Shown here one piece after another: positions 6,460 to 16,296 of a DNA stretch of 16,296 nt. A program made the translations under genes and the position numbers. The stretch's first letter is position 1, and each line of letters starts with the position of its first letter. Origin of the DNA: Spirochaetaceae bacterium (lineage in GTDB: Bacteria > Spirochaetota > Spirochaetia > Treponematales > Breznakiellaceae); assembly GCA_031280115.1 (NCBI GenBank), contig JAITHF010000014.1, positions 1 through 16,296 on the forward strand. The letters are read 5' to 3'. The notes beneath the pieces are model-generated. The model saw nothing but the letters and a program-made list of their open reading frames with translations, ran no database searches and was not told the origin of the DNA.

Positions 6460-6584
6460 GAAACCCCCTGCGGGGGGTTCACGTGCTTCTTGCGGCGGGA
6501 GGGTTTGCAATTTTAGTACAACCCAGAAGCGGCGCCTCATCGCGCTTCGATAGCGTGAGCAGCGCAGGAAGCCTTGAGTGGGGG

Positions 6585-6608
6585 TTTGGGGGAACTGGTT
6601 CCCCCAAA
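6585..6608. repeat. 24-bp inverted repeat inside element A
   Basis: Arms TTTGGGGGAAC and GTTCCCCCAAA surround two bases (TG). The identical sequence occurs at 16273-16296 in copy D, so it is a standard part of the left arm. In copy C the matching place holds the CAGCC-NNN-GGCTG hairpin instead. Confidence 0.75.
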
Positions 6609-6651
6609 TTCTCTTTAAGAGGCGCGAAGCGCCGATAATTCGTTATAACAT

Positions 6652-6696
6652 AATGATTTATACGGGGACAGGATAGTTTATTTTGCTGGCAAACAA
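6652..6696. repeat. 45-base block identical, in reverse, to 11203-11247
   Basis: The block starts AATGATTTATACGGGGACAG and runs through the first palindromic unit of the core. The reverse complement of 11203-11247 is the same over all 45 bases, although the surrounding arms differ. This fixes the cores of copies A and C as opposite in orientation. Confidence 0.8.
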
Positions 6697-6756
6697 ACTT
6701 ATTTTGCTAGCAAATAAACTCACTTTGCTAGCAAAGAAACTTGTTTTGCGTGCAAA
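6682..6756. repeat. Array of 21-bp-period palindromes, core of element A
   Basis: Four 12-bp palindromes of the form TTTGC-NN-GCAAA lie at 6682, 6703, 6724 and 6745, exactly 21 bases apart; two contain the perfect palindrome TTTGCTAGCAAA. A degraded fifth follows at about 6766. Linkers are A/T-rich (ACAAACTTA type). The even two-helical-turn spacing would place every unit on the same face of the DNA. Confidence 0.85.
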
Positions 6757-7115
6757 AAAACCGGTTTTCCTGCCGTGCTTTGTTGGTATGTTAAAAATTA
6801 TCGGCGCTTTCGCGCCTCTTAAAGAGAATTTGGAGGGCTTTTTTACCGGCGCTTCATGGTTTGCGGCTCATAGTGCAAACGACGGCTACTGAAACAGCCG
6901 GAGGCTGCCCCCAAACCACCCCTAAAGGCGACGTGTGCAGCGCCGCTAACGTTATCAAAGCGCGCTGAGGCGCCGCTTCGGGGTTGTGACTAAACGTCCG
7001 AACCCTCCCGCCGCAAGAAGCACGTGAATCACCCGCAGGGTGTGAAACAGCCTCCGGCTGCCCGCAGGGGGCGCAGGGTGTTTGATTTTGATAAGCCAGC
7101 TCGTAAAATGGAAGT

Positions 7116-7805
7116 ATGGGAAAGAAAAAAGTCACGGCCCTTGCCGCGGCAATGCTCTCCGCCGCCGCGCTCCTTGCCGCCGAAAGTACGGCCAACGGCT
7201 TCTTTTATGCCATCAACAACGGGCAAACCATCACCATCACCGGCTATTTCGGGGATCTTGCCAGCCTTGTTATCCCTGAACGCATACAAGATATGCCGGT
7301 AACAGCCATCGGTAACAGCGCGTTTATCCGGTGTGCGCGCCTCACCAGCATTACTATCCATGCCTCTATAGATACCATCGGGGAATAGGCGTTTATGGGA
7401 TGTGAAAACCTTACGACTATCATCGTGGACAAACAAAACCCCGCCTACGCCAGCGTTGGCGGCGCGCTTTTTGACAAAGCCCTTGAGACCCTTATAGCCT
7501 GCCCCGGAGGAAAAACCGGCGCCTACGCCATTCCCACGTCGGTCATTGCCCTGGGCGCCGAATCCCTTGCATAGTGCGGTAAACTGACCGGCGTTGCCAT
7601 CCCCAACTCGGTTATTACTATAGGAAGGCGGGCGTTTGCCGGATGCAGGAACCTTGCCAGCGTGGCAATCCCTCCGTCGGTCATTGTCATCGGCCAGGCC
7701 GCCTTCTTCCGCTGCGACGGCTTTGCGCTTGCCGCCCTCTCAAACCGTACCGCCATAGGGGAGCGGGCGTTTCCCTCACAGACGCGCCTTGCCTGCCGCG
7801 ACTAG
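7116..7805 (+). pseudogene. BspA-type leucine-rich-repeat protein, broken by two in-frame TAG codons
   Basis: From ATG 7116 the frame reads a signal peptide (MGKKKVTALAAAMLSAAALLA) and then LRR_5/BspA units such as VTAIGNSAFIRCARLTSITI and ITIGRRAFAGCRNLASVAIP. TAG interrupts the frame at 7386-7388 (after 90 codons) and again at 7572-7574; the same frame resumes each time with perfect repeat register and ends at TAG 7803-7805 (229 codons). There is no frameshift. Intact relatives are secreted or surface proteins used in adhesion. The ribosome site is poor. It is the only plus-strand gene here, lies just downstream of element A, and its end overlaps the convergent radical SAM stop by four bases (7802-7805). 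Decay is the simplest reading; amber readthrough is the alternative. Confidence 0.8.
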
Positions 7806-8749
7806 GGGGATGAGGGGGCGGCAAAATGCCAGACCGGCGTTGAAAGGGCCGGCGGGAAGGGGTTTTCCCGCCTGAAGTCTGGAAGCGCGCCCGGGTCCGG
7901 CGCCAAGTCCTGGCAAAAGCCCTCGTCTATAGCAAATTCCCGCAGCCAGCCAACCAGCCGCTCGTATTCCCGCCCGTTTAGGGGGCGTTTAAGCGGCGCG
8001 TTCCCTGCCGGCGTGTACTGGGACATCACCGAGAGGAGCGCCCGCCCCTGCCAGCGGTCCGCGAAACAGCGGAGCACCGCCCTGCTTGCGGCAAGCAGCC
8101 CCGGGAGCGCAAGGTGGCGTATGATCACCCCTGAAACCAGCAGGTTGTTCTTAAACCTAAGAGGGCTTGCCTGTATCATCCGCTCGATTGCCTGCGGCGC
8201 CCTTTCAGGGTAGTCAGGCGCGTTGAACAGGCGCCGGCTCACGGCGCTGTCAAGGGTTTTAAGGTCCGGCAGATACCCGTCTACGGCGCCTTCCAGCAGG
8301 GACAGGGTTTCGGCCCGCTCATAGGCGGATGAGTTCCACAGGGCCGGGATGGCCAGCCCTTGGGCCCGGGCGCAGGCGATTCCCGCGGCCAGCGCCGGCG
8401 CCGCGTGGCTTCCGGTTACGATGTTGATATTCTCCGCGCCCCGGGCCTGCAATTCGAGGCATATACGGGCAAAGGTTTCGGTTGATACCTCCCGCCCCAT
8501 GCGCTCCCGGGAGATCTGGGCGTTCTGGCAGAAGGGGCAGCGCAGGTTGCAGCCTGTCACAAAGACGGCGCCGGAGCCGCCTGCGCCGGTAACAGGCGGC
8601 TCTTCCCCGCGGTGGATAACCGCGGCGCCGAGGCGGAGCGCGCTGGTTTCCCCGCAGTACCCCTGTTCCCCTGCGGCGCGGTTTACCCCGCAGTTTCGGG
8701 GGCAGAGCCGGCACCGCGCATATTCTTCTTGTTCTTGTTCTTGTTTCAT
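7802..8749 (-). CDS. Radical SAM protein, PflX-like (pyruvate formate-lyase activating enzyme-related)
   Basis: This 315-residue protein has the radical SAM cluster CNLRCPFC (C67, C71, C74), which binds a 4Fe-4S centre and cleaves S-adenosylmethionine. Four more cysteines (C13, C16, C20, C32) in CRLCPRNCG...YCGE precede it, as in the COG1313/PflX group. The segments WNSSAYERAETLSLLEGAVDGYLPDLKTLD, NAPDYPERAPQAIERM, the HLALPGLL stretch and LSVMSQYTPAG also fit that group. Its substrate is unknown, and no glycyl-radical enzyme is adjacent. I chose ATG 8749, preceded by GGGGGC; a TTG at 8818 would add a low-complexity GAGGAGGA extension made from tandem repeats. The N-terminus EQEQEQEE is also a repeat. 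It probably has its own transcript. Confidence 0.85.
   Translation of the reverse strand: MKQEQEQEEYARCRLCPRNCGVNRAAGEQGYCGETSALRLGAAVIHRGEEPPVTGAGGSGAVFVTGCNLRCPFCQNAQISRERMGREVSTETFARICLELQARGAENINIVTGSHAAPALAAGIACARAQGLAIPALWNSSAYERAETLSLLEGAVDGYLPDLKTLDSAVSRRLFNAPDYPERAPQAIERMIQASPLRFKNNLLVSGVIIRHLALPGLLAASRAVLRCFADRWQGRALLSVMSQYTPAGNAPLKRPLNGREYERLVGWLREFAIDEGFCQDLAPDPGALPDFRRENPFPPALSTPVWHFAAPSSP
8719..8746. repeat. 6-bp tandem repeat at the start of the radical SAM gene
   Basis: On the coding strand CAAGAA units repeat about four times directly after ATG AAA and encode Gln-Glu repeats. The unit is a multiple of three, so copy changes would alter length without shifting the frame. Confidence 0.6.
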
Positions 8750-8750
8750 A

Positions 8751-8783
8751 GCGCCCCCTGCGCCCCCTGCGCCCCCTGCGCCC
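8751..8783. repeat. 9-bp tandem repeat just upstream of the radical SAM start
   Basis: GCGCCCCCT is present 3.7 times in perfect tandem. On the coding strand each unit holds AGGGGGC, so the array overlaps the likely ribosome binding site. Confidence 0.75.
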
Positions 8784-8884
8784 AGCCGGGGGAATACGAT
8801 GCCCTTGTCCCCAGACAACCCATTTCGTATAACGAATTATCGGCGCTTTCGCGCCTCTTTGAAGAGTTTATGAGGGCTTTTTTA

Positions 8885-9194
8885 CCGGCGCTTCATGGGT
8901 TGCGTATTCTTTTGCGAACTTCCCGTAAGGAAACAGCCTTCGGCTGCCGGCGCTTCATGGTTTGCGTATTCTTTTGCGAACTTCCCGTAAGGGAACAGCC
9001 TCCGGCTGCCGGCGCTTCATGGTTTGCGTATTCTTTTGCGAACTTCCCGTAAGGGAACAGCCTCCGGCTGCCGGCGCTTCATGGTTCGCGTATTCTTTTG
9101 CGAACTTCCCGTAAGGAAACAGCCTCCGGCTGCCGGCGCTTCATGGGTTGCGTATTCTTTTGCGAACTTCCCGTAAGGAAACAGCCTTCGGCTG
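8885..9194. repeat. Five tandem 62-bp repeats
   Basis: Units start at 8885, 8947, 9009, 9071 and 9133, each with CCGGCGCTTCATGG, then GCGTATTCTTTTGCGAAC, TTCCCGTAAGGGAA (hairpin) and CAGCC-NNN-GGCTG (hairpin). They differ at only a few bases. The period is not a multiple of three, so open frames crossing the array are accidental. A single related unit lies near 11394-11447 in copy C. Confidence 0.9.
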
Positions 9195-9286
9195 CCCTCC
9201 AAACCACCCCCTAAAGGCTTCGTGTGCAGCGCCGCTAACGCCTGCGAAGCGCGATGAGGCGCCGCTTCTGGGTTGTGACTAAAATT

Positions 9287-9356
9287 GCGAACCCTCTCGC
9301 TACTAGAAGCACCTGAATCCCCCGCAGGGGGCGAACCCTCTCGCTACTAGAAGCAC
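9287..9356. repeat. 26-bp direct repeat pair
   Basis: GCGAACCCTCTCGCTACTAG followed by AAGCAC occurs at 9287-9312 and again at 9331-9356, 44 bases apart, with a CCCCCGCAGGGGG hairpin between. This is a duplicated tip of the repeat arm. Confidence 0.75.
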
Positions 9357-9377
9357 GTAAAACCCCCTTCGGGGGGC
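9357..9377 (-). terminator. Rho-independent-type terminator after deoC
   Basis: On the minus strand CCCCC-GAA-GGGGG is followed by TTTT, beginning one base after the deoC TAG. The hairpin is the tip of repeat element B. The T run is short. Confidence 0.5.
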
Positions 9378-10031
9378 CTACGGCTGGGGGGCTAAGAGGG
9401 CAATCGCAGAACTGGTTCCTATCCGGTCGCATCCGGCGTTGATAAACGCCTCAAGAGCGTCTCTGGTTTTTATGCCCCCAGAACCTTTTATCTTAACCCC
9501 CGGCCCAAGGCGGGATTTGAACAGCCGGACGTCCTCAAGGGCCGCGCCGGCAGGGCCAAAGCCTGTGGAGGTCTTGATGTAGTCCGCGCCGCCGGCGCTG
9601 ACAATTTCGCAGAGCAGCCCCTTCTCCTCAAGGGTAAGATAGCAGGCCTCCACAATAACTTTGAGCACCCGCTTTCCTACGGCCTCTTTAAGCAGGGTGA
9701 TTTCCCGCTCAACAGCGGCAAAGTTCCGGTTCTTTACGTCCCCCAGATTGATAACCATGTCGATTTCAGAGGCTCCCGCGATAAGGGCTTCTTCGGCTTC
9801 GCTGATCTTCACCCGGGCCGTGCTGTACCCCAAGGGAAAACCGATAACCGTGCCGATAACAAGGCCCCCCCCAAAGCGGTCATGGGCGCGCTTGATATAT
9901 GACGGGGGGATGCAGGCCGACGCAGTCCGGTACGCAGCCGCTTCGCCGCACAGCGCCTTCACCGCCTCCCAGTCCGCGTCGGCCTTGAGCAAGGTGTGGT
10001 CAACCCTGCTCAGGATTTCTTCGTCAGTCAT
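9378..10031 (-). CDS. deoC: Deoxyribose-phosphate aldolase
   Basis: This 217-residue class I aldolase splits 2-deoxyribose-5-phosphate into glyceraldehyde-3-phosphate and acetaldehyde in deoxynucleoside salvage. Family signatures are VDHTLLKADA (10-19), GFPLGYSTARVK (64-75), EIDMVINLG with catalytic D91, KVIVEAC, YIKTSTGF with Schiff-base K153, and VKIKGSGGI with the relay lysine K182. Length is normal. ATG 10031 overlaps the TGA of the DinB-like gene (ATGA), so the pair is co-translated. No deoA, deoB or nucleoside transporter is beside it. The stop codon lies one base from a repeat-derived terminator hairpin. Confidence 0.97.
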   Translation of the reverse strand: MTDEEILSRVDHTLLKADADWEAVKALCGEAAAYRTASACIPPSYIKRAHDRFGGGLVIGTVIGFPLGYSTARVKISEAEEALIAGASEIDMVINLGDVKNRNFAAVEREITLLKEAVGKRVLKVIVEACYLTLEEKGLLCEIVSAGGADYIKTSTGFGPAGAALEDVRLFKSRLGPGVKIKGSGGIKTRDALEAFINAGCDRIGTSSAIALLAPQP

Positions 10032-10558
10032 CCCAGAAGTTCCGGTTTAAGCGACGAATAGGTATGCTCTATTTTAAGCTCGTCCAGTATTTGGGAGATC
10101 TGCCCCCGGTGGTGGACGCCGTGGGTAAAGAGGTTCTGCAAGACGAAATACAGGGGAACCGCCTCAGGATTGCCCTTGTAAAAAGGCACCTTCACCGGCG
10201 CCCGCAGGTCTTCTTCTTTAAGCGCCGCGGTAAAACTGATAAGCGCCTCATCAGCGGCCTTGCATGAAGCCGTAAAGGTTTTCCATTGCTCTTCGGTTAA
10301 AGGGCCCTTGGGAACGGAAACCCCCTCAATAACCCCCAGGGCTTTAAGCGCCTCCTGATTGCGGGGCACAGCCGGCTTCAGCAGGCTTTGAAAGAACACC
10401 GGCCCCTCAAGCAGGTGCCGCGCAAGACCGGAGAGGCTTTTATAATAACTCTCCCGATCCTTTTCCCGGGCCTCGTTGGAAAGGGTGTTGAGCAGGGACA
10501 GCGCCGCGCAGTCTGCGCCGCTGTTGTATTTCGCGCTTATAAGCAGCAGGTTTTTCAT
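10028..10558 (-). CDS. DinB-family putative metal-dependent four-helix protein
   Basis: The product is 176 residues from ATG 10558, chosen because GAGGAG sits seven bases upstream; a longer in-frame reading to 10684 runs into repeat element C. The helical pattern with H48 (LARHLLEGPVFF) and HGVHHRGQ (H146, H149/H150) matches the DinB/YfiT-type three-histidine metal site. This fold covers varied enzymes, including thiol transferases, so a precise activity cannot be given; it is unrelated to DNA polymerase IV. It is translationally coupled to deoC. Confidence 0.8.
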   Translation of the reverse strand: MKNLLLISAKYNSGADCAALSLLNTLSNEAREKDRESYYKSLSGLARHLLEGPVFFQSLLKPAVPRNQEALKALGVIEGVSVPKGPLTEEQWKTFTASCKAADEALISFTAALKEEDLRAPVKVPFYKGNPEAVPLYFVLQNLFTHGVHHRGQISQILDELKIEHTYSSLKPELLG

Positions 10559-10589
10559 GTATATACTCCTCGTAAAAGTCGTTACTTTA

Positions 10590-10618
10590 AACCTAGCGGA
10601 TATTTTTCCCTGCCGCAA
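10590..10618 (-). promoter_or_regulatory. Possible promoter for the dinB-like/deoC pair
   Basis: TTGCGG (10618-10613) and TAGGTT (10595-10590) are 17 bases apart on the minus strand, about 32 bases before the start codon. The match to consensus is weak, especially at -10. Confidence 0.3.
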
Positions 10619-10660
10619 TACGGTTTGCCCGGGGCTTTCTAAGATAGTACCAGAGCGGTG

Positions 10661-11580
10661 AATCCCCCCCTGCGGGGGTTTCACGTGCTTCTTGCGGCGA
10701 GCGGGTTTGTGGGTTTAGTCACAACCCAGAAGATGGGCCTCAGCGGAATTCGCAAGCGTTAGCGGCGCGAAGCAGGACGCCGTTGGTTGGGGGTTTGGGG
10801 GCAGCCTCCGGCTGTTTCAGCAGTCGTCGTTTGCGCTATGAGCCGCAAAACAGGAAGCGCTGATAAAAAAGCCCCCCAAATTCTTCCCAAAGAGGCGCAA
10901 AGCGCCGATAATTTATGCTATCCCAACAGAGCGCGATGGAAAAATCGGTTTTTTTGCCAGCAAAATAAGATTTTTTGCTAACAAATAAAAGTTATTTGCC
11001 AGCAAAATAAAGTTATTTGCCAGCAAATAAAAGTTGTTTGCCAGCAAAATAAAGTTTTTTTGCTAACAAATAAAAGTTGTTTGCCAGCAAATAAAAGTTA
11101 TTTGCCAGCAAAATAAAGTTATTTGCCAGCAAAATAAGTTTTTTTGCTAACAAATAAAAATTGTTTGGCGGCAAAATAAAGTTGTTTGCCGGCAAAATAA
11201 AGTTGTTTGCCAGCAAAATAAACTATCCTGTCCCCGTATAAATCATTGTTTTATACCGGATTATCGGCGCTGCGCGCCTCTTTGAAGAGAATTTGGAGGG
11301 CTCTTTTACATGCGCTTCATGTTTTGCGGCTCATAGTGCAAACGACGACTGCTGAAACAGCCGGAGGCTGCCCCCAAACCCCCCATAAAGGCTTCATGGT
11401 TCGCGTATTCTTTTGCGAACTTCCCGTAAGGGAACAGCCTTCGGCTGCCTCCAAACCCCCCATAAAGGCTTCCTGCTTCGCGCCCATGCGTTATCGAAGC
11501 CCGCTGAGGCGTTACGTCATGCGATCCCTGCACCTGAAACCCGCCCGCCGCAGGATGCGCCTGAATCCCCGGGCGCAGGC
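10661..11580. repeat. Composite foldback repeat element, copy C (largest)
   Basis: This copy is about 920 bases between dinB and ftsH. The left arm (10661 to about 10915) has a CCCCC-TGC-GGGGG hairpin, CACGTGCTTCTTGCGGCG, TTTAGTCACAACCCAGAAG, a CAGCC-NNN-GGCTG hairpin (10802-10814) and GAGGCGCAAAGCGCCGATAA. The right arm (about 11261-11580) is the reverse complement: TTATCGGCGCTGCGCGCCTC near 11261, a second hairpin (11358-11370), one 62-bp-type unit ending with a third hairpin (11435-11447), and CCCGCCCGCCGCAGGATGCG. The core holds 13 palindromic units. The right arm extends into the 3' end of ftsH. No transposase is present and no credible gene lies within. Confidence 0.82.
10953..11217. 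repeat. Array of thirteen 21-bp-period palindromes, core of element C
   Basis: Units start at 10953, 10974, 10995, 11016, 11037, 11059, 11080, 11101, 11122, 11143, 11164, 11185 and 11206: spacing is 21 bases except one 22. Most are TTTGCCAGCAAA; every fourth unit (2, 6, 10) is TTTGCTAACAAA preceded by a T run, giving a higher-order repeat of about 84 bases. Unit 12 is the perfect palindrome TTTGCCGGCAAA. Units abut with 9-base linkers, so this is not a CRISPR array. Confidence 0.92.
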
Positions 11581-13490
11581 TGGGCGGTTATGGCCTTAAA
11601 CTCGCGCTCGTCTAACGTTTCCTTGTCCAAGAGCGCCTGCGCCACCTGGTCGAGCATATTCCGGCGCTGTTCCAGCATAACCTTGGTTCTCCCGTACTCC
11701 TCCTCAAGGATACGGGCAATCTCCTCGTCAACATACTGCTGGGTGCTTTCCGCGTATTCCCGCTGAAAAAGCGGCTCCTGCCGGTCAGCGCCGGCGCCGC
11801 GGGAGGTGAGCGCCACATTGCGGAACCTGTCGCTCATGCCATAGTCGGTTATCATCTTGCGGGCGATGTCCGTGGCTTTGGTAAGGTCGTTTGCCGCGCC
11901 GGTGGAATACTCGCCTGAAACCATCTCCTCCGCCGCGCGCCCGCCTAACAGCATGGCTATCTTGCCCAAAAGATAAGAACGGGTTATCGTATACCGGTCC
12001 TCAACCGGCATTTGTATCGTATAGCCCAGAGAAACCCCCCGGGGGATGATGGATATTTTCTGCACCGGATCGGCATGAGGCGTAAACGCCGCCACCAGCG
12101 CGTGCCCGGCCTCGTGGTACGCCGTAAGCCGGCGCTCCTCAGGGGGGATAACCCGCGTCTTTTTCTGTAATCCCGCCACGATTTTCTCGATAGCCTCGCT
12201 GAAATCCTGCTGTTCCACGGCTTTCCTGCCGGAACGTACCGCCAAGAGCGCCGCCTCATTGACGATATTGGCTAAATCAGCGCCGGAAAAGCCCGAAGTA
12301 ATCCGCGCCACCGCGTCAAGGCGCACCCCGCCGCTCAGTTTCACGGCCCTGGTGTGGATATGCAGGATCGCTTCCCGGCCCTTGAGGTCGGGCCGGTCAA
12401 CCAGCACCTGCCGGTCAAAGCGCCCGGGGCGCAGGAGCGCAGGATCAAGCACGTCAGGGCGGTTCGTGGCGCCCAGAACAATAAGGCCCCCGGCAGCGTC
12501 AAAGCCGTCCATCTCTACCAAAAGCTGGTTAAGGGTCTGCTCCCGCTCGTCGTTCCCGCTGGCGGCGCTGTTCATCCTGCTCTTGCCGATAGCGTCAAGC
12601 TCGTCAATAAAGATGATGCACGGCGCTTTGTCCCGGGCCTGCTTAAATAAATCCCGCACCCGCGCCGCGCCGACCCCCACAAACATCTCTACAAAGTCAG
12701 CGCCGCTCATGCGGAAGAAAGACACCCCGGCTTCGCCTGCCACGGCGCGGGCCAGAAGGGTCTTCCCCGTGCCCGGGGGCCCCACCAAAAGCACGCCTTT
12801 GGGTATCTTGCCGCCGATGTCCGTGTATTTCCGCGGGTTTCTGAGAAAGTCCACCACCTCCACAAGCTCGTCTTTGGCCTCGTCAACCCCGGCCACGTCG
12901 TTGAAACGGGTGGCAATGTCCCCTTCGGCCACAATCACCGCCCGGTTCTGCCCCACTGAAAGCACGTTCCCCCCCATGTTCCGCAGGCGTTTAAGGATAA
13001 AGCGCCAGATTAAAAATAAAACCCCGATGGGAAGCACCCAGCTAAAGAGAATATTGAGCAGCATATTCCCCTCCCGGGAAGCGGCGTAATAAGAAACCCG
13101 TTTTTCATCCATGAGCCGTATGATTTCAGGGTCGTTTATGGGGACCGTGCGGTAAACCGGCTCCCGGGGCGGGGCGGGGAAGGTTCTCAAGCCGCCCCTG
13201 CCGGCAGCCTCCCGTTTCGCCGCGGTATAGCCGGTAAAGTACGAATCCGTAAGCTCCACCCGCTTTATCTCGCCTGAGGCAATTTTGGCTTTGAACTCTG
13301 AAAAATCAACCGTAGGGTTTACTTTTTTCATAAAGGCATAGTTAAAAAGGCTCATCCCCGCAACCAGAATAAGCACATACACAAGGGAAAACTTCCAGTC
13401 CTTAAACGGTTTGAGATCCGGAAGGCGCGGGCCGCCGGAGCGGTCTTCCGGGGGCTTTTTTTTCTGGGAATCAGACCCGTCGCTATTCAC
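11517..13490 (-). CDS. ftsH: ATP-dependent zinc metalloprotease FtsH
   Basis: This 657-residue membrane-anchored AAA+ protease degrades misfolded membrane and some soluble proteins. Two membrane segments (about 34-53 and 143-164) flank a periplasmic domain. The AAA module has Walker A GPPGTGKT (237-244), pore loop FVGVG (270-274), Walker [10 protein letters not shown] (292-300) and arginine fingers in RPGRFDR (354-360). The zinc site is HEAGH (459-463) with D535 as probable third ligand. The start is GTG 13490, overlapping the MscS stop (GTGA). The conserved body ends near residue 635 (LDEREFKAI); the last 17 or so residues, [17 protein letters not shown], are translated from the arm of repeat element C. 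The active-site residues are intact, so the enzyme should be functional. Confidence 0.97.
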
Positions 13491-14320
13491 GTCAAACGCT
13501 CCTCGCTAACTTTAATATCTATCTTTTGATAGGGCAATTCAATATGCTCCTGGTCAAAACGTTTCTTTATGCCCATAAACATCGCGGTTTTTGTCTCTAA
13601 AATATAATTCCGGTCAAACCAGACATTAAAAATAACCGCCGCGCCGGCGCGGTCGAACTGGTCAACCCGGAAAAGCGGCGCCGGGTTCTCAAGCACATAG
13701 GGTTCCTTTGCCGCCACGTCCAGCGCCGCGTCGCGCACCCGCTCAAGATCCTCCGCGTAGCTCACGGTAAACGCCACGTCCAGCCTTCGTATGGGAAAGC
13801 GGGTCAGGTTCGTGACGCTGCTCTTAAACAGCGTCTCGTTAGGGATACGCACATAGAGGTTGTCGAAGGTACGCAGTTTCACGGATAAAAGGTCTATTGA
13901 CAGCACTTCCCCCATAAGATTATCCACGACAATCGCGTCCCCCGCCTCAAAGGGCTTTTCCGACAGGAGGAAGAGGCCGGAGATGATGCTTGACACCGAC
14001 GTCTGCGCCGCAAAGCCCAGGGCGATGCCCGCAACGCCGGCAGCGCCCAGAAGCGCGGAGGTGTCTATGCCCATGCTCTTAAAAAGAAAAAGCATCCCCA
14101 TCACAAAGCCGGTATACCGGATGCCCTTGCGTATCATAAAGGTCCGCCGGGGGTTGGCGCGGTTTTTAAGCAGCCGCCCGGCGATAAACTGGAGCAGGTT
14201 AAACAGGATGATAATAACCGCCGCCATGAGGACCGCGCAGACAATACGCACCAAAAGGTCAAAGGGGCCGGCGCTGTCAAGGCGGGCCAGCACCGCGGCT
14301 ATAAACTCGCTGACGCTCAT
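13487..14320 (-). CDS. Small-conductance mechanosensitive channel (MscS family)
   Basis: This 277-residue inner-membrane channel opens under membrane tension to release solutes during hypo-osmotic shock. Predicted membrane helices are about 22-46, 65-83 and the pore-lining helix 88-119. The last is the conserved Gly/Ala-rich [18 protein letters not shown], followed by [19 protein letters not shown] into the beta domain ([18 protein letters not shown]). Size is that of the minimal MscS architecture. ATG 14320 has GAGG eight bases upstream. Its TGA overlaps the ftsH GTG, so the two are coupled, and it follows the upstream gene by 12 bases. Confidence 0.95.
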
Positions 14321-14332
14321 AGAAGTACCTCG

Positions 14333-15109
14333 CTAGAATTGGGTAATGTGTTTAATAATATCCATGCTTTGGCGGGCGAAGGTTTCGCCGGCGCCGGTTT
14401 TGACCCCGGCGCTGACCAGCCTGTATGAGGCGTCCCCAAGGTCCCGGACAATGGTTTTCTCGTCCATATCCGGGCCGTAGAACTCAATGTCCACCGGGTC
14501 CGCCGCAAGAAGCCCGCCCTTGGCGTACACGCTAAGCGGCGGCGGGTAGAGGACGAACCGCTCAAGGGCGAAGGGGGTTTTGGAACGGTTTCTGACACGC
14601 AGGCCGCCGCGGATGCAGCAGGAAGGCGCCGGCGGTTCTGCTTCCGCTGTTTCCGGCGCCAGCCCCCCTGTAACCAAGTGGCAGAAATGGCCGGACATGG
14701 TGTCCGGCCCGAACCAGGTCTGTTTAGGGGCAAGGGGCATGGCTTCCCCCAGGGTGAAAGGCCCGTCGGTTTCGAGCCGTACCGCAGGGGGCAGGAGCAG
14801 GGTAAAGGCCGCCTCCTGTTCAGGCGCTATTTTCACGGACTCCCGGGGCGCGAGTTTAAGAAGGTACGGCGTCCCGCTCAGGCAGGGGCGCAGCACGGCG
14901 GTTTCCCCGCTTCCCCATACCCGGGTAAGGGGGATGTCCGGCGGCGCTGCTTCTTCAGGCCCCCCGCAGTCATCCGTGCGGGCGCAGAGCGGCGCCGCGC
15001 TGAAGCCGGTTTCCCAGTTCTTGCTTCCTGTTTTCCGCAGGTACGCGGCGCCGCCGTTTAAGCGCCAGCGGTACCAGGTCATAATTTTCGGCTTAAAAGG
15101 ATACCACAT
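14333..15109 (-). CDS. Uncharacterised protein, possibly DUF432
   Basis: This 258-residue soluble protein starts at ATG 15109 with GGGAG seven bases upstream; the longer reading frame further upstream only shadows argF. It begins MWYPFKPKIMTWYRWRLNGG and shows TRVWGSGETAVLRPCLSGTP, a Pro-rich beta-type middle (FTLLLPPAVRLETDGPF) and FALERFVLYPPPLSVYAKGG, with PVDIEFYGPDMDEKTIVRDL near the end. No signal or membrane helix is visible. The pattern (sugar-like W-G start, LPP strand, then LYPPPLSVYAK) recalls DUF432 proteins that occur beside MscS channels, but I judge this by eye. The 12-base gap to mscS suggests a partner or regulator of the channel. There is a 46-base gap from argF. Confidence 0.7.
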   Translation of the reverse strand: MWYPFKPKIMTWYRWRLNGGAAYLRKTGSKNWETGFSAAPLCARTDDCGGPEEAAPPDIPLTRVWGSGETAVLRPCLSGTPYLLKLAPRESVKIAPEQEAAFTLLLPPAVRLETDGPFTLGEAMPLAPKQTWFGPDTMSGHFCHLVTGGLAPETAEAEPPAPSCCIRGGLRVRNRSKTPFALERFVLYPPPLSVYAKGGLLAADPVDIEFYGPDMDEKTIVRDLGDASYRLVSAGVKTGAGETFARQSMDIIKHITQF

Positions 15110-15155
15110 AATCTGTCTCCCGCTCTGCCGCGGCGCCTGCCGGCATAAAAGGGCC

Positions 15156-16097
15156 TTACGGCAAGGTGGCCAGCATGACGGCCTTAATCGTGTGTTTCCG
15201 GTTCTCCGCTTCGTCCCAAACGCGGCTTTGGGGCCCGTCAATGACCTCGGCGGCGACCTCTTCGCCTTTAACCGCCGGAAGGCAATGGAGGAATACCGCG
15301 TCTTCCCGCCCGGTACGGTCCATAAGCGCCTGATTGACCTGATAGGGGCGAAGGAGGGCGGCCCGTTCCTCCCGTTTGGCTTCCTCCCCCATAGAGGCCC
15401 ACACGTCGGTATAGAGCGCGTCCGCGCCGGCAACCCCGCCCAAGTCCGGGGTTATACGCAGTTCCGCGCCGGCGCGCTCCGCCATATCCGTACATAGAGC
15501 GGTGAGGCCCGGGTCCGGGTTAAGCGCCGGCGGGGTGATAATCGTGAAATGCACGCCCATCTTGGCGCATATCACCATAAGCGAGCGGGCCACGTTGTTT
15601 CTGCCGTCCCCTACGAAGCACAGGGTTTTGCCCCGGGCGGTTCCGAAGTTTTCTTCGATAGTCATAAGATCCGCCAGAACCTGGGTGGGATGGAAACTAT
15701 CGGTAAGCCCGTTATACACGGGCACCCCCGAATAGACCGCCAGGGTTTCAAGGGTGGTATGTTTGAAACCCCGGAACTGGATGGCGTCGAACATCCTGCC
15801 CAGCACAACGGCAGTATCCTCAACCGATTCTTTTGCCCCGAGCTGTATATCGTCTATCGAAAGAAATACCGGATGCCCCCCTTCCTCTCCAAACGCGGTT
15901 TCAAACGCGCAGCGGGTACGGGTGGAGCGTTTTTCAAAGAGGAGGGCAAGGGATTTTCCCTTGAACCGCTGGCGGGCCTCTCCGCCGCGCCGTTCTTTTT
16001 TGAGTTCTTTTGCCGTATTCAGAATAAAGCGGATTTCTTCTTCCCCGTAATCAAGCCAGGTAAGCAGGGAGCGGCCTTTTAATTTTGTCGTATCCAT
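15156..16097 (-). CDS. argF: Ornithine carbamoyltransferase
   Basis: This 313-residue transferase joins carbamoyl phosphate and ornithine to form citrulline. It has the carbamoyl-phosphate loop FEKRSTRTRCAFE (54-66), HPTQVLADLMT (136-146), FVGDGRNNVARSL (161-173), the ornithine loop DVWASMGEE (231-239) and HCLPA (271-275). Residue order and length are normal. In this position it could serve arginine synthesis (argF) or the arginine deiminase route (arcB); no other arginine gene is present to decide. No ribosome site precedes ATG 16097, and a predicted promoter lies so close that the message may be nearly leaderless. It is first in a four-gene cluster ending with ftsH. Confidence 0.96.
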   Translation of the reverse strand: MDTTKLKGRSLLTWLDYGEEEIRFILNTAKELKKERRGGEARQRFKGKSLALLFEKRSTRTRCAFETAFGEEGGHPVFLSIDDIQLGAKESVEDTAVVLGRMFDAIQFRGFKHTTLETLAVYSGVPVYNGLTDSFHPTQVLADLMTIEENFGTARGKTLCFVGDGRNNVARSLMVICAKMGVHFTIITPPALNPDPGLTALCTDMAERAGAELRITPDLGGVAGADALYTDVWASMGEEAKREERAALLRPYQVNQALMDRTGREDAVFLHCLPAVKGEEVAAEVIDGPQSRVWDEAENRKHTIKAVMLATLP

Positions 16098-16106
16098 AAT
16101 AGCGCT

Positions 16107-16135
16107 ATCATACTGATCTTCTTTTTCAATAGCAA
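16107..16135 (-). promoter_or_regulatory. Promoter for the argF-mscS-ftsH cluster, probably near-leaderless
   Basis: TTGCTA (16135-16130) and TATGAT (16112-16107) are 17 bases apart. A start about seven bases beyond -10 falls near 16100, only a few bases before ATG 16097. The -35 box touches the GGGGG end of repeat element D. Confidence 0.5.
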
Positions 16136-16296
16136 CCCCCTGCGGGCAGCCGGAGGCTGTTTAAAGTGCTTCTCGCGGCGAGCGGGTTTGCAATTTTAGT
16201 CACAACCCAGAAGCGGCGCCTCACCGCGCTTTGATAACGCACGGGCGCAGCGCAGGAAGCCTTTAGCGGGGGTTTGGGGGAACTGGTTCCCCCAAA
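16135..16296. repeat. Composite repeat element, copy D (left arm, cut by window end)
   Basis: The stretch holds CCCCCTGCGGG, a CAGCC-NNN-GGCTG hairpin (16147-16159), GTGCTTCTCGCGGCGAGCGG, TTTAGTCACAACCCAGAAGC and GGCGCCTCACCGCGCTTTGA, then GCGGGGGTTTGGGGG. It closely matches the left arm of copy A at 6481-6608, and ends in the same 24-bp inverted repeat (16273-16296). The core and right arm, if any, lie beyond the window. Confidence 0.8.

What the first reader, a model, noticed from the sequence alone, without database searches (positions are those of the whole stretch)
6461..16296. A family of large composite foldback elements fills four intergenic regions
Seen: copies at 6461-7080, 8827-9377, 10661-11580 and 16135 to the end share long arm sequences, and two copies carry the arms in inverted orientation around a palindrome core. 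All have GC hairpin tips and mosaic internal modules (24-bp inverted repeat, 13-bp hairpin, 62-bp unit). There is no transposase. Inference: a non-autonomous, recombining element family, perhaps moved in trans or maintained as a regulatory or chromosome-organising repeat.
Basis: partly seen in the sequence, partly recalled or inferred. Interest (0 to 1): 0.78.

Follow-up and report, generated by a model that had tools for sequence, protein, structure and literature searches.

The report
Mini-hairpin repeats crowding a bacterial genome
The spaces between genes of an uncultured spirochaete, probably from a termite gut, hold hundreds of patchwork repeats built from tiny DNA hairpins and 21-base tandem arrays; some relatives carry the same design written in other letters, which suggests that DNA shape is what is being kept.

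Summary
The window is one contig of a 1.84-Mb draft genome (62% complete) of a Treponema relative. The arm recurs about once per 3.8 kb: 29 regions in 110.5 kb, on 17 of 20 contigs taken in order. (1) Element ends are 13-nt hairpins, 5-bp stem and 3-nt loop: a perfect one precedes 82 of 89 arm starts, and 81 of these 82 have a GNA loop or its complement TNC, closed by C-G. Inside elements 180 of 216 such hairpins follow this rule, outside 37 of 173. It is the published rule for extraordinarily stable DNA mini-hairpins (passages of PMC4686876). (2) The core is a tandem array of period 21 whose sequence differs between loci while self-complementarity is kept. (3) The design recurs, partly with other letters, in scattered members of the family. 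Best reading: a non-autonomous, REP/BIME-like intergenic repeat system kept and copied at the level of DNA hairpins. The mover is unknown; a RAYT transposase does not track the repeats. Mobility is not shown.

The parts
6461..7080 (+). Element E1: inverted arms around a 21-bp array
6464..6476 (+). Left terminal mini-hairpin CCCCC-TGC-GGGGG
   Evidence: a perfect 5-bp/3-nt hairpin precedes 82 of 89 arm starts
6463..6640 (+). Left arm of E1 (query of the genome searches)
6588..6605 (+). Arm tip GGGGGAACTGGTTCCCCC (other copies have GGAGGGTC/GACCCTCC)
6621..6633 (+). Mini-hairpin GGCGC-GAA-GCGCC
6664..6676 (-). Array flank R (GGGGACAGGATAG), here on the left of the array: core inverted relative to E3
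6678..6761 (+). 21-bp tandem array, 4.0 units, palindrome TTTGCTAGCAAA plus linker
6908..7043 (-). Right (inverted) arm of E1
7030..7060 (.). Right-end mini-hairpins CACCC-GCA-GGGTG and CAGCC-TCC-GGCTG
8827..9377 (+). Element E2: one-sided copy
8885..9196 (+). Five 62-bp units, each with a CAGCC-TYC-GGCTG mini-hairpin
9319..9375 (.). Mini-hairpins CCCCC-GCA-GGGGG and CCCCC-TTC-GGGGG at the end of E2, in two copies of a 44-bp arm start
10661..11580 (+). Element E3: inverted arms around a long 21-bp array; right end overlaps the 3' end of ftsH
10666..10678 (+). Left terminal mini-hairpin CCCCC-TGC-GGGGG
10924..10934 (+). Array flank L (CAACAGAGCGC)
10953..11222 (+). 21-bp tandem array, 12.8 units
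11223..11235 (+). Array flank R (CTATCCTGTCCCC)
11260..11579 (-). Right arm of E3 with mini-hairpins at 11266, 11358, 11435; its outer end is degenerate
16135..16296 (+). Element E4: left arm, cut by the contig end; mini-hairpin CAGCC-GGA-GGCTG at 16147-16159

Best explanation
These are copies of a high-copy, non-autonomous intergenic repeat system whose basic unit is a DNA mini-hairpin: 5-bp stem, GNA triloop closed by C-G, then a short linker. Hairpins with a tail form the ends of the arms. Palindromic units repeated head to tail every 21 bp form the cores. Recombination between the hundreds of copies shuffles arms, tips and cores into mosaics. Shown: the copy number, the hairpin termini, the loop rule, the constant period with changing sequence, and recurrence of the design in other genera. 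Inferred: that units are copied and kept because of the shape they take as single-stranded or extruded DNA, for instance at replication or as a hairpin-ended intermediate protected from exonucleases. So it works like REP/BIME repeats, but with a loop-and-spacing rule in place of a fixed sequence tag, and with an unidentified enzyme or none.
For: Copy number. Termini: a perfect 5-bp/3-nt hairpin just before 82 of 89 arm starts, 81 of the 82 with a GNA/TNC loop, on four different stems. Loop rule: 180 of 216 inside elements v 37 of 173 outside; 18 of 19 inside the four window elements v 1 of 7 elsewhere in the window; whole genomes, CAGCCNNNGGCTG 603 of which 562 GNA/TNC in G000, 754/740 in G003, 63/57 in G021. 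G021: 40 of 49 triloop hairpins with 7-bp stems follow it on many unrelated stems, in loci chosen by one stem. Control samples from seven other sets show 17 to 27 per cent GNA/TNC, against 52 per cent in G000 and 53 in G003 over whole contigs (my division). Arrays: 63 of 177 tandem-repeat rows have period 21, next commonest 9 with 27. Units form longer stems than shuffles: G000 22 clusters 4.73 v 3.45, G003 17 clusters 4.71 v 3.33, p <= 0.0005 each (the G003 set is partly chosen by arm hits). In G062 a 21-bp unit is exactly a 13-nt hairpin plus 8 nt (L296 1180-1244). GNA loops as exceptionally stable, nuclease-resistant DNA hairpins: passages of PMC4686876.
Against: No movement, empty site or target duplication was seen or looked for by alignment. 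Hairpins are related by descent, so counts are not independent; among distinct hairpin sequences inside elements 26 of 40 follow the rule. The tip GGGTC-TAT-GACCC breaks it (22 cases). In G062 and G077 hairpins other than CAGCC show no enrichment, 5 of 26 and 0 of 3. 21 of 54 arrays lack both flank motifs. By a crude ORF caller 27% of element bases overlap an ORF of 120 aa or more, v 82% of all bases, so 'intergenic' is not strict. The energy models at hand give no preference for GNA in DNA or RNA and neither support nor refute the stability argument.
Confidence: 0.5

Rival explanations
1. A true REPIN-RAYT system: the single Y1 (RAYT-like) transposase of this genome copies the hairpin repeats through single-stranded intermediates.
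For: G000 and G003 each have one Y1 match in the drafts, 80% identical. The array flank GGGGACAG resembles the motif GGGACAGAGC found in 9 of 30 Y1 loci of the order, mostly upstream (read by eye).
Against: Hairpin-rich G021 and G155 have no Y1 match; sister species with 8 to 97 Y1 matches (nine in genera g22 and g26) have at most 3 CAGCC hairpins. One Y1 locus per genome was checked in G000, G003, G062, G077 and G139: no C-GNA-G hairpin in four, one in G139's. Drafts are incomplete, several loci end near the gene, and G062 and G077 have 34 and 13 Y1 matches of which one each was checked.
Confidence: 0.15
2. Transcribed structural RNA: the elements act in untranslated regions as terminators, processing sites or regulators.
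For: Compensatory changes in the GGGGGAAC/GTTCCCCC tip. In the window each of the four copies lies upstream of a gene. Convergent gene pairs are somewhat frequent, 8 of 22 classifiable regions v 23 of 134 background pairs.
Against: RNAalifold finds both-sided changes in 5 of 32 pairs, four in that tip and one in the terminal hairpin. No Rfam match in the window. GNA triloops have no advantage in the RNA energy model. 49 of 71 regions touch a contig edge and could not be classified.
Confidence: 0.13
3. DNA-binding arrays: 21 bp is two helical turns, so palindromic units lie on one face and bind a nucleoid or chromosome-organising protein.
For: Strict 21-bp period with self-complementary units.
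Against: Unit sequence differs widely between arrays (22 clusters among 52 units), hard to square with one sequence-specific protein; a shape-reading protein remains possible. Samples of G002 and G006 held no such array (small samples).
Confidence: 0.12
4. Neutral accumulation: the genus lost the hairpin nuclease SbcCD, so palindromes and slippage arrays pile up without function.
For: SbcD over cut-off in 0 of 6 genus members, against 20 of 35 genomes overall. SbcC: no genus member better than E = 4e-7, with 16 candidates scored in each.
Against: Four of the six genus members lack both SbcD and the hairpin expansion, and hairpin-rich G021 has SbcCD. Loss of a nuclease does not explain the loop rule. 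Drafts are 62-81% complete.
Confidence: 0.1

Closest known systems
REP / REPIN / BIME repeats (REP-associated tyrosine transposase systems; abstract and outline of PMC3116915)
   Same: Short palindromes in hundreds of mostly intergenic copies, some in inverted pairs, mosaic with other modules.
   Different: No GTAG tag among the commonest hairpin neighbours, no RAYT seen among the repeats, one loop rule with changing stems, and 21-bp arrays in the core.
CGTC-tagged REPs (PMC3733652, passages read), which include Neisseria dRS3 and Rickettsia RPE-4 and RPE-6
   Same: High-copy palindromes without a dedicated transposase.
   Different: Those have 8-9-bp stems and 4-5-nt loops; here 5-bp stems and 3-nt loops, and no CGTC among the 8 commonest following 4-mers in G000.
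Extraordinarily stable d(GCGAAGC)-type DNA mini-hairpins (PMC4686876, passages read)
   Same: GNA loop on a stem closed by C-G.
   Different: Described there as a physical motif and aptamer part; here the design rule of a natural repeat family.
MITEs and foldback elements (recalled)
   Same: Non-coding, dispersed, inverted arms in some copies.
   Different: No target duplication shown; ends are mini-hairpins; some copies one-sided.

Membership tests
REPIN-RAYT system | High-copy extragenic palindromes | tested here: met
   no element region wholly inside an ORF, 27% of element bases overlap crude ORFs
REPIN-RAYT system | Inverted doublets forming a larger hairpin | tested here: inconclusive
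   E1 and E3 yes, E2 no, E4 cut
REPIN-RAYT system | Cognate RAYT flanked by the repeats | tested here: not met
   one Y1 locus in each of five genomes; G000's locus ends at a contig end just after the gene, so its 3' side is unseen
REPIN-RAYT system | Repeat number follows presence of the RAYT | tested here: not met
GTAG/CGTC REP superfamilies | GTAG or CGTC at the foot of the hairpin | tested here: not met
   not among the 8 commonest following 4-mers, both sides, of 60 CAGCC hairpins in G000
MITE | Target-site duplication | not tested
   no empty site was aligned
MITE | Defined termini | tested here: met
   82 of 89 arm starts
C-GNA-G DNA mini-hairpin | GNA triloop closed by C-G | tested here: met
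C-GNA-G DNA mini-hairpin | Exceptional melting temperature and nuclease resistance | not testable with these tools
   the energy files gave all triloops the same DNA energy

The most novel reading that the evidence does not exclude
A repeat system defined by DNA shape and spacing, not by sequence: any stem will do so long as the tip is C-GNA-G, and any self-complementary unit so long as the period is 21 bp. It has expanded separately in several genera of treponeme relatives, and would be copied by an unknown enzyme that reads single-stranded DNA hairpins, or as a hairpin-ended, nuclease-protected single-stranded intermediate.
Probability: 0.25. Interest if true: 0.82.

Novelty: new variant of a known kind. 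Interest (0 to 1): 0.6.

Why it matters
How bacterial palindromic repeats without a dedicated transposase arise and spread is an open question (raised in the passages read of PMC3733652). Here the conserved thing seems to be a DNA hairpin shape with a known physical basis, while letters turn over. That makes the question testable with short oligonucleotides and close strains. The repeats take up about 6% of the contigs sampled in order and 49 of 71 element regions in 41 contigs, half of them chosen for hits, have no callable gene on one side because a contig ends there, so such repeats may often be lost from short-read assemblies (inference).

Tried and rejected
RAYT as the mover: rejected as a predictor, although the GGGGACAG array flank resembles a motif near Y1 genes (9 of 30 loci, no formal enrichment test). 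SbcCD loss as the cause: absence is genus-wide in these drafts, but neither necessary nor sufficient. Arms evolving in concert within an element: not supported. A first palindrome score on circular units was weak for single arrays, 8 of 52 at p < 0.05, mean 6.60 v 5.66; the stem score on clustered units was clear. Whole-arm RNA fold: little covariation. Long inverted repeats are not strikingly commoner in G000, 6.3 per 100 kb against 0 to 6.2 in eight other sets and 22.5 in G003. Energy models for the loops: uninformative. Tetraloops GNNA/TNNC: 33 of 65 inside v 31 of 200 outside with 5-bp stems, but 1 of 12 inside v 11 of 65 outside with 6-bp stems. With 6-bp and longer stems the triloop rule fails in G000 samples: 10 of 48, 3 of 28 and 1 of 9 for 6, 7 and 8 bp. 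Plasmid collection: no match. Viral contigs: no exact match to one arm string or one flank string. Paper searches gave nothing on such repeats in termite-gut treponemes in their listings; most subscription papers are not held.

Rows dropped before counts: hairpins whose loop ends could pair; stems with fewer than three G or C; arrays under 2.5 units; element regions under 100 bp.
Full report
WHERE IT IS. The window is contig C218 of a draft genome, 1,844,453 bases in 301 contigs, 62.05% complete. The best named relatives by the ornithine carbamoyltransferase gene are Treponema/Spirochaetaceae MAGs, 79% identical at best. That their isolate codes are termite samples is recalled, from no call; gene names in the window are my reading of the ORFs.

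THE REPEAT IS GENOME-WIDE. The left arm of E1 has 63 matches in its own genome, with 40 of 550 candidates scored. In the first 20 contigs, taken in order, the four window copies match 29 merged regions on 17 contigs, 6,674 of 110,534 bp; scaled up this is roughly 480 regions in the assembly (inference). Among 57 other genomes the arm is found in G003 (17 matches) and G005 (3) of the same genus, and by one weak match each in G002 and G049.

ANATOMY. In 41 contigs, 89 arm starts were found; 82 have a perfect 5-bp/3-nt hairpin just before the arm body, 81 of them with a GNA/TNC loop, on the stems CCCCC, CAGCC, CACCC and CCCTC; the other seven have imperfect versions or a loop whose ends can pair. 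Start units are repeated in tandem in several copies, with periods from 44 to 115 bp. The core is a 21-bp array. Its flanks are recognisable in some copies (L, CAACAGAG; R, CTATCCTGTCCCC), and E1's core is inverted relative to E3's. Of 54 arrays, 23 have at least one recognised flank, 21 have neither motif on either side, and 10 have none and touch a contig edge on one side. By a crude ORF caller no element region lies wholly inside an ORF, though 27% of element bases overlap one.

LOOP RULE. Among 5-bp-stem triloop hairpins whose loop ends cannot pair, 180 of 216 inside elements have a GNA or TNC loop, against 37 of 173 outside. By stem: CAGCC 72 of 75, CCCCC 64 of 66, GGCGC 33 of 35 (added up from the listing). 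The middle position takes all four bases in CAGCC and three in each of the other two, and the hairpin occurs in both orientations relative to the arm, while the outer loop bases stay. Copy number alone would not spare just the outer two positions. Distinct sequences give 26 of 40. In the window 18 of 19 hairpins inside the elements follow the rule and 1 of 7 elsewhere. Genome-wide, CAGCCNNNGGCTG occurs 603 times in G000, of which 562 are GNA/TNC; 754 and 740 in G003; 63 and 57 in G021; 6 and 2 in G005; 3 and 0 in G001. The rule belongs to the 5-bp modules: in the G000 contigs sampled in order, triloops with stems of 6, 7 or 8 bp do not show it (10 of 48, 3 of 28, 1 of 9).

OTHER LETTERS, SAME DESIGN. 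G003 uses CCGTC-GGA-GACGG as well as CAGCC. G021, another genus, carries a different dispersed repeat with 7-bp stems of many sequences: 40 of 49 triloops follow the rule, 36 of 45 if the two stems ending in CAGCC, by which the loci were chosen, are left out. Over the family, 195 genomes, the CAGCC form is abundant only in G003 (740), G000 (562), G062 (171), G021 (57), G155 (29), G139 (19), G077 (17) and G072 (16); all others have at most 10. The commonest 4-mer next to the hairpin is TTTC in G000 (36, among 60 hairpins), G003 (21 of 47) and G062 (17 of 21), TTTA in G077 (8 of 12) and G072 (3 of 4), but TATA in G021 (10 of 20). Other stems in G062 and G077 do not follow the rule, 5 of 26 and 0 of 3.

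ARRAYS. Of 177 non-overlapping tandem-repeat rows in 41 contigs, 63 have period 21; the next commonest is 9, with 27. In samples taken in contig order there are 21 arrays in 110.5 kb of G000, 13 in 53.4 kb of G003, 2 in 102.6 kb of G005, 3 in 72.0 kb of G001, 3 in 57.1 kb of G004, none in 32.2 kb of G002 and none in 76.4 kb of G006; some in G001 and G004 look coding (by eye). Unit types change along one array in phase (L080 60-600). After clustering, units form longer stems than their shuffles in both G000 and G003. In G062, G077 and G072 21-bp arrays occur in the loci fetched for hairpins, and in G062 one unit is a 13-nt hairpin plus 8 nt. This suggests that the array is a string of hairpin units (inference).

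WHO MOVES IT. Y1 transposase matches in hairpin-rich genomes: G000 1, G003 1, G062 34, G077 13, G072 14, G139 1, G155 0, G021 0; in the 16 other genomes of that search 0 to 97. The one Y1 locus examined in each of G000, G003, G062 and G077 holds no such hairpin, G139's holds one. The genus lacks SbcD over cut-off in all six drafts, which may make long inverted arms tolerable (inference), but G021 has SbcCD.

HOW IT MAY WORK. Passages of PMC4686876 describe GNA and GNNA loops on G-C stems as unusually stable DNA hairpins, Tm 78 C for GCGAAGC, resistant to nucleases and protecting 3' ends from exonucleases. An element with such hairpins at its ends would be protected if it passed through a linear single-stranded stage. 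This is the mechanism I think most likely to explain the loop rule; no step of it was observed.

WHAT IS KNOWN. I read the abstract and outline of PMC3116915 and passages of PMC3733652, PMC6006769, PMC4686876 and PMC13155455. None of what I saw describes a GNA rule in natural repeats or 21-bp hairpin arrays.

Noticed in passing
11517-11580: The ftsH reading frame runs about 60 bp into element E3, so its last ~20 residues appear to be encoded by the repeat.
   Followed up: partly
7116-7805: A leucine-rich-repeat-like gene (type recalled) beside E1 has in-frame TAG codons at 7386 and 7572 before a third at 7803, and looks like a pseudogene.
   Followed up: no
8751-8783: 3.7 perfect copies of the 9-mer GCGCCCCCT near the start of a gene that reads like a radical-SAM activase (recalled).
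   Followed up: no
L088, L177, L178, L180, L184, L185, L186, L196, L197: The motif GGGACAGAGC occurs, in some several times, near Y1 transposase genes of the order, mostly upstream (9 of 30 loci).
   Followed up: partly
genomes G000-G005: SbcD not found over cut-off in any of six genus members.
   Followed up: partly
genomes G030, G060, G061, G062: Very many Y1 transposase matches in one genus: 97, 46, 33, 34.
   Followed up: no
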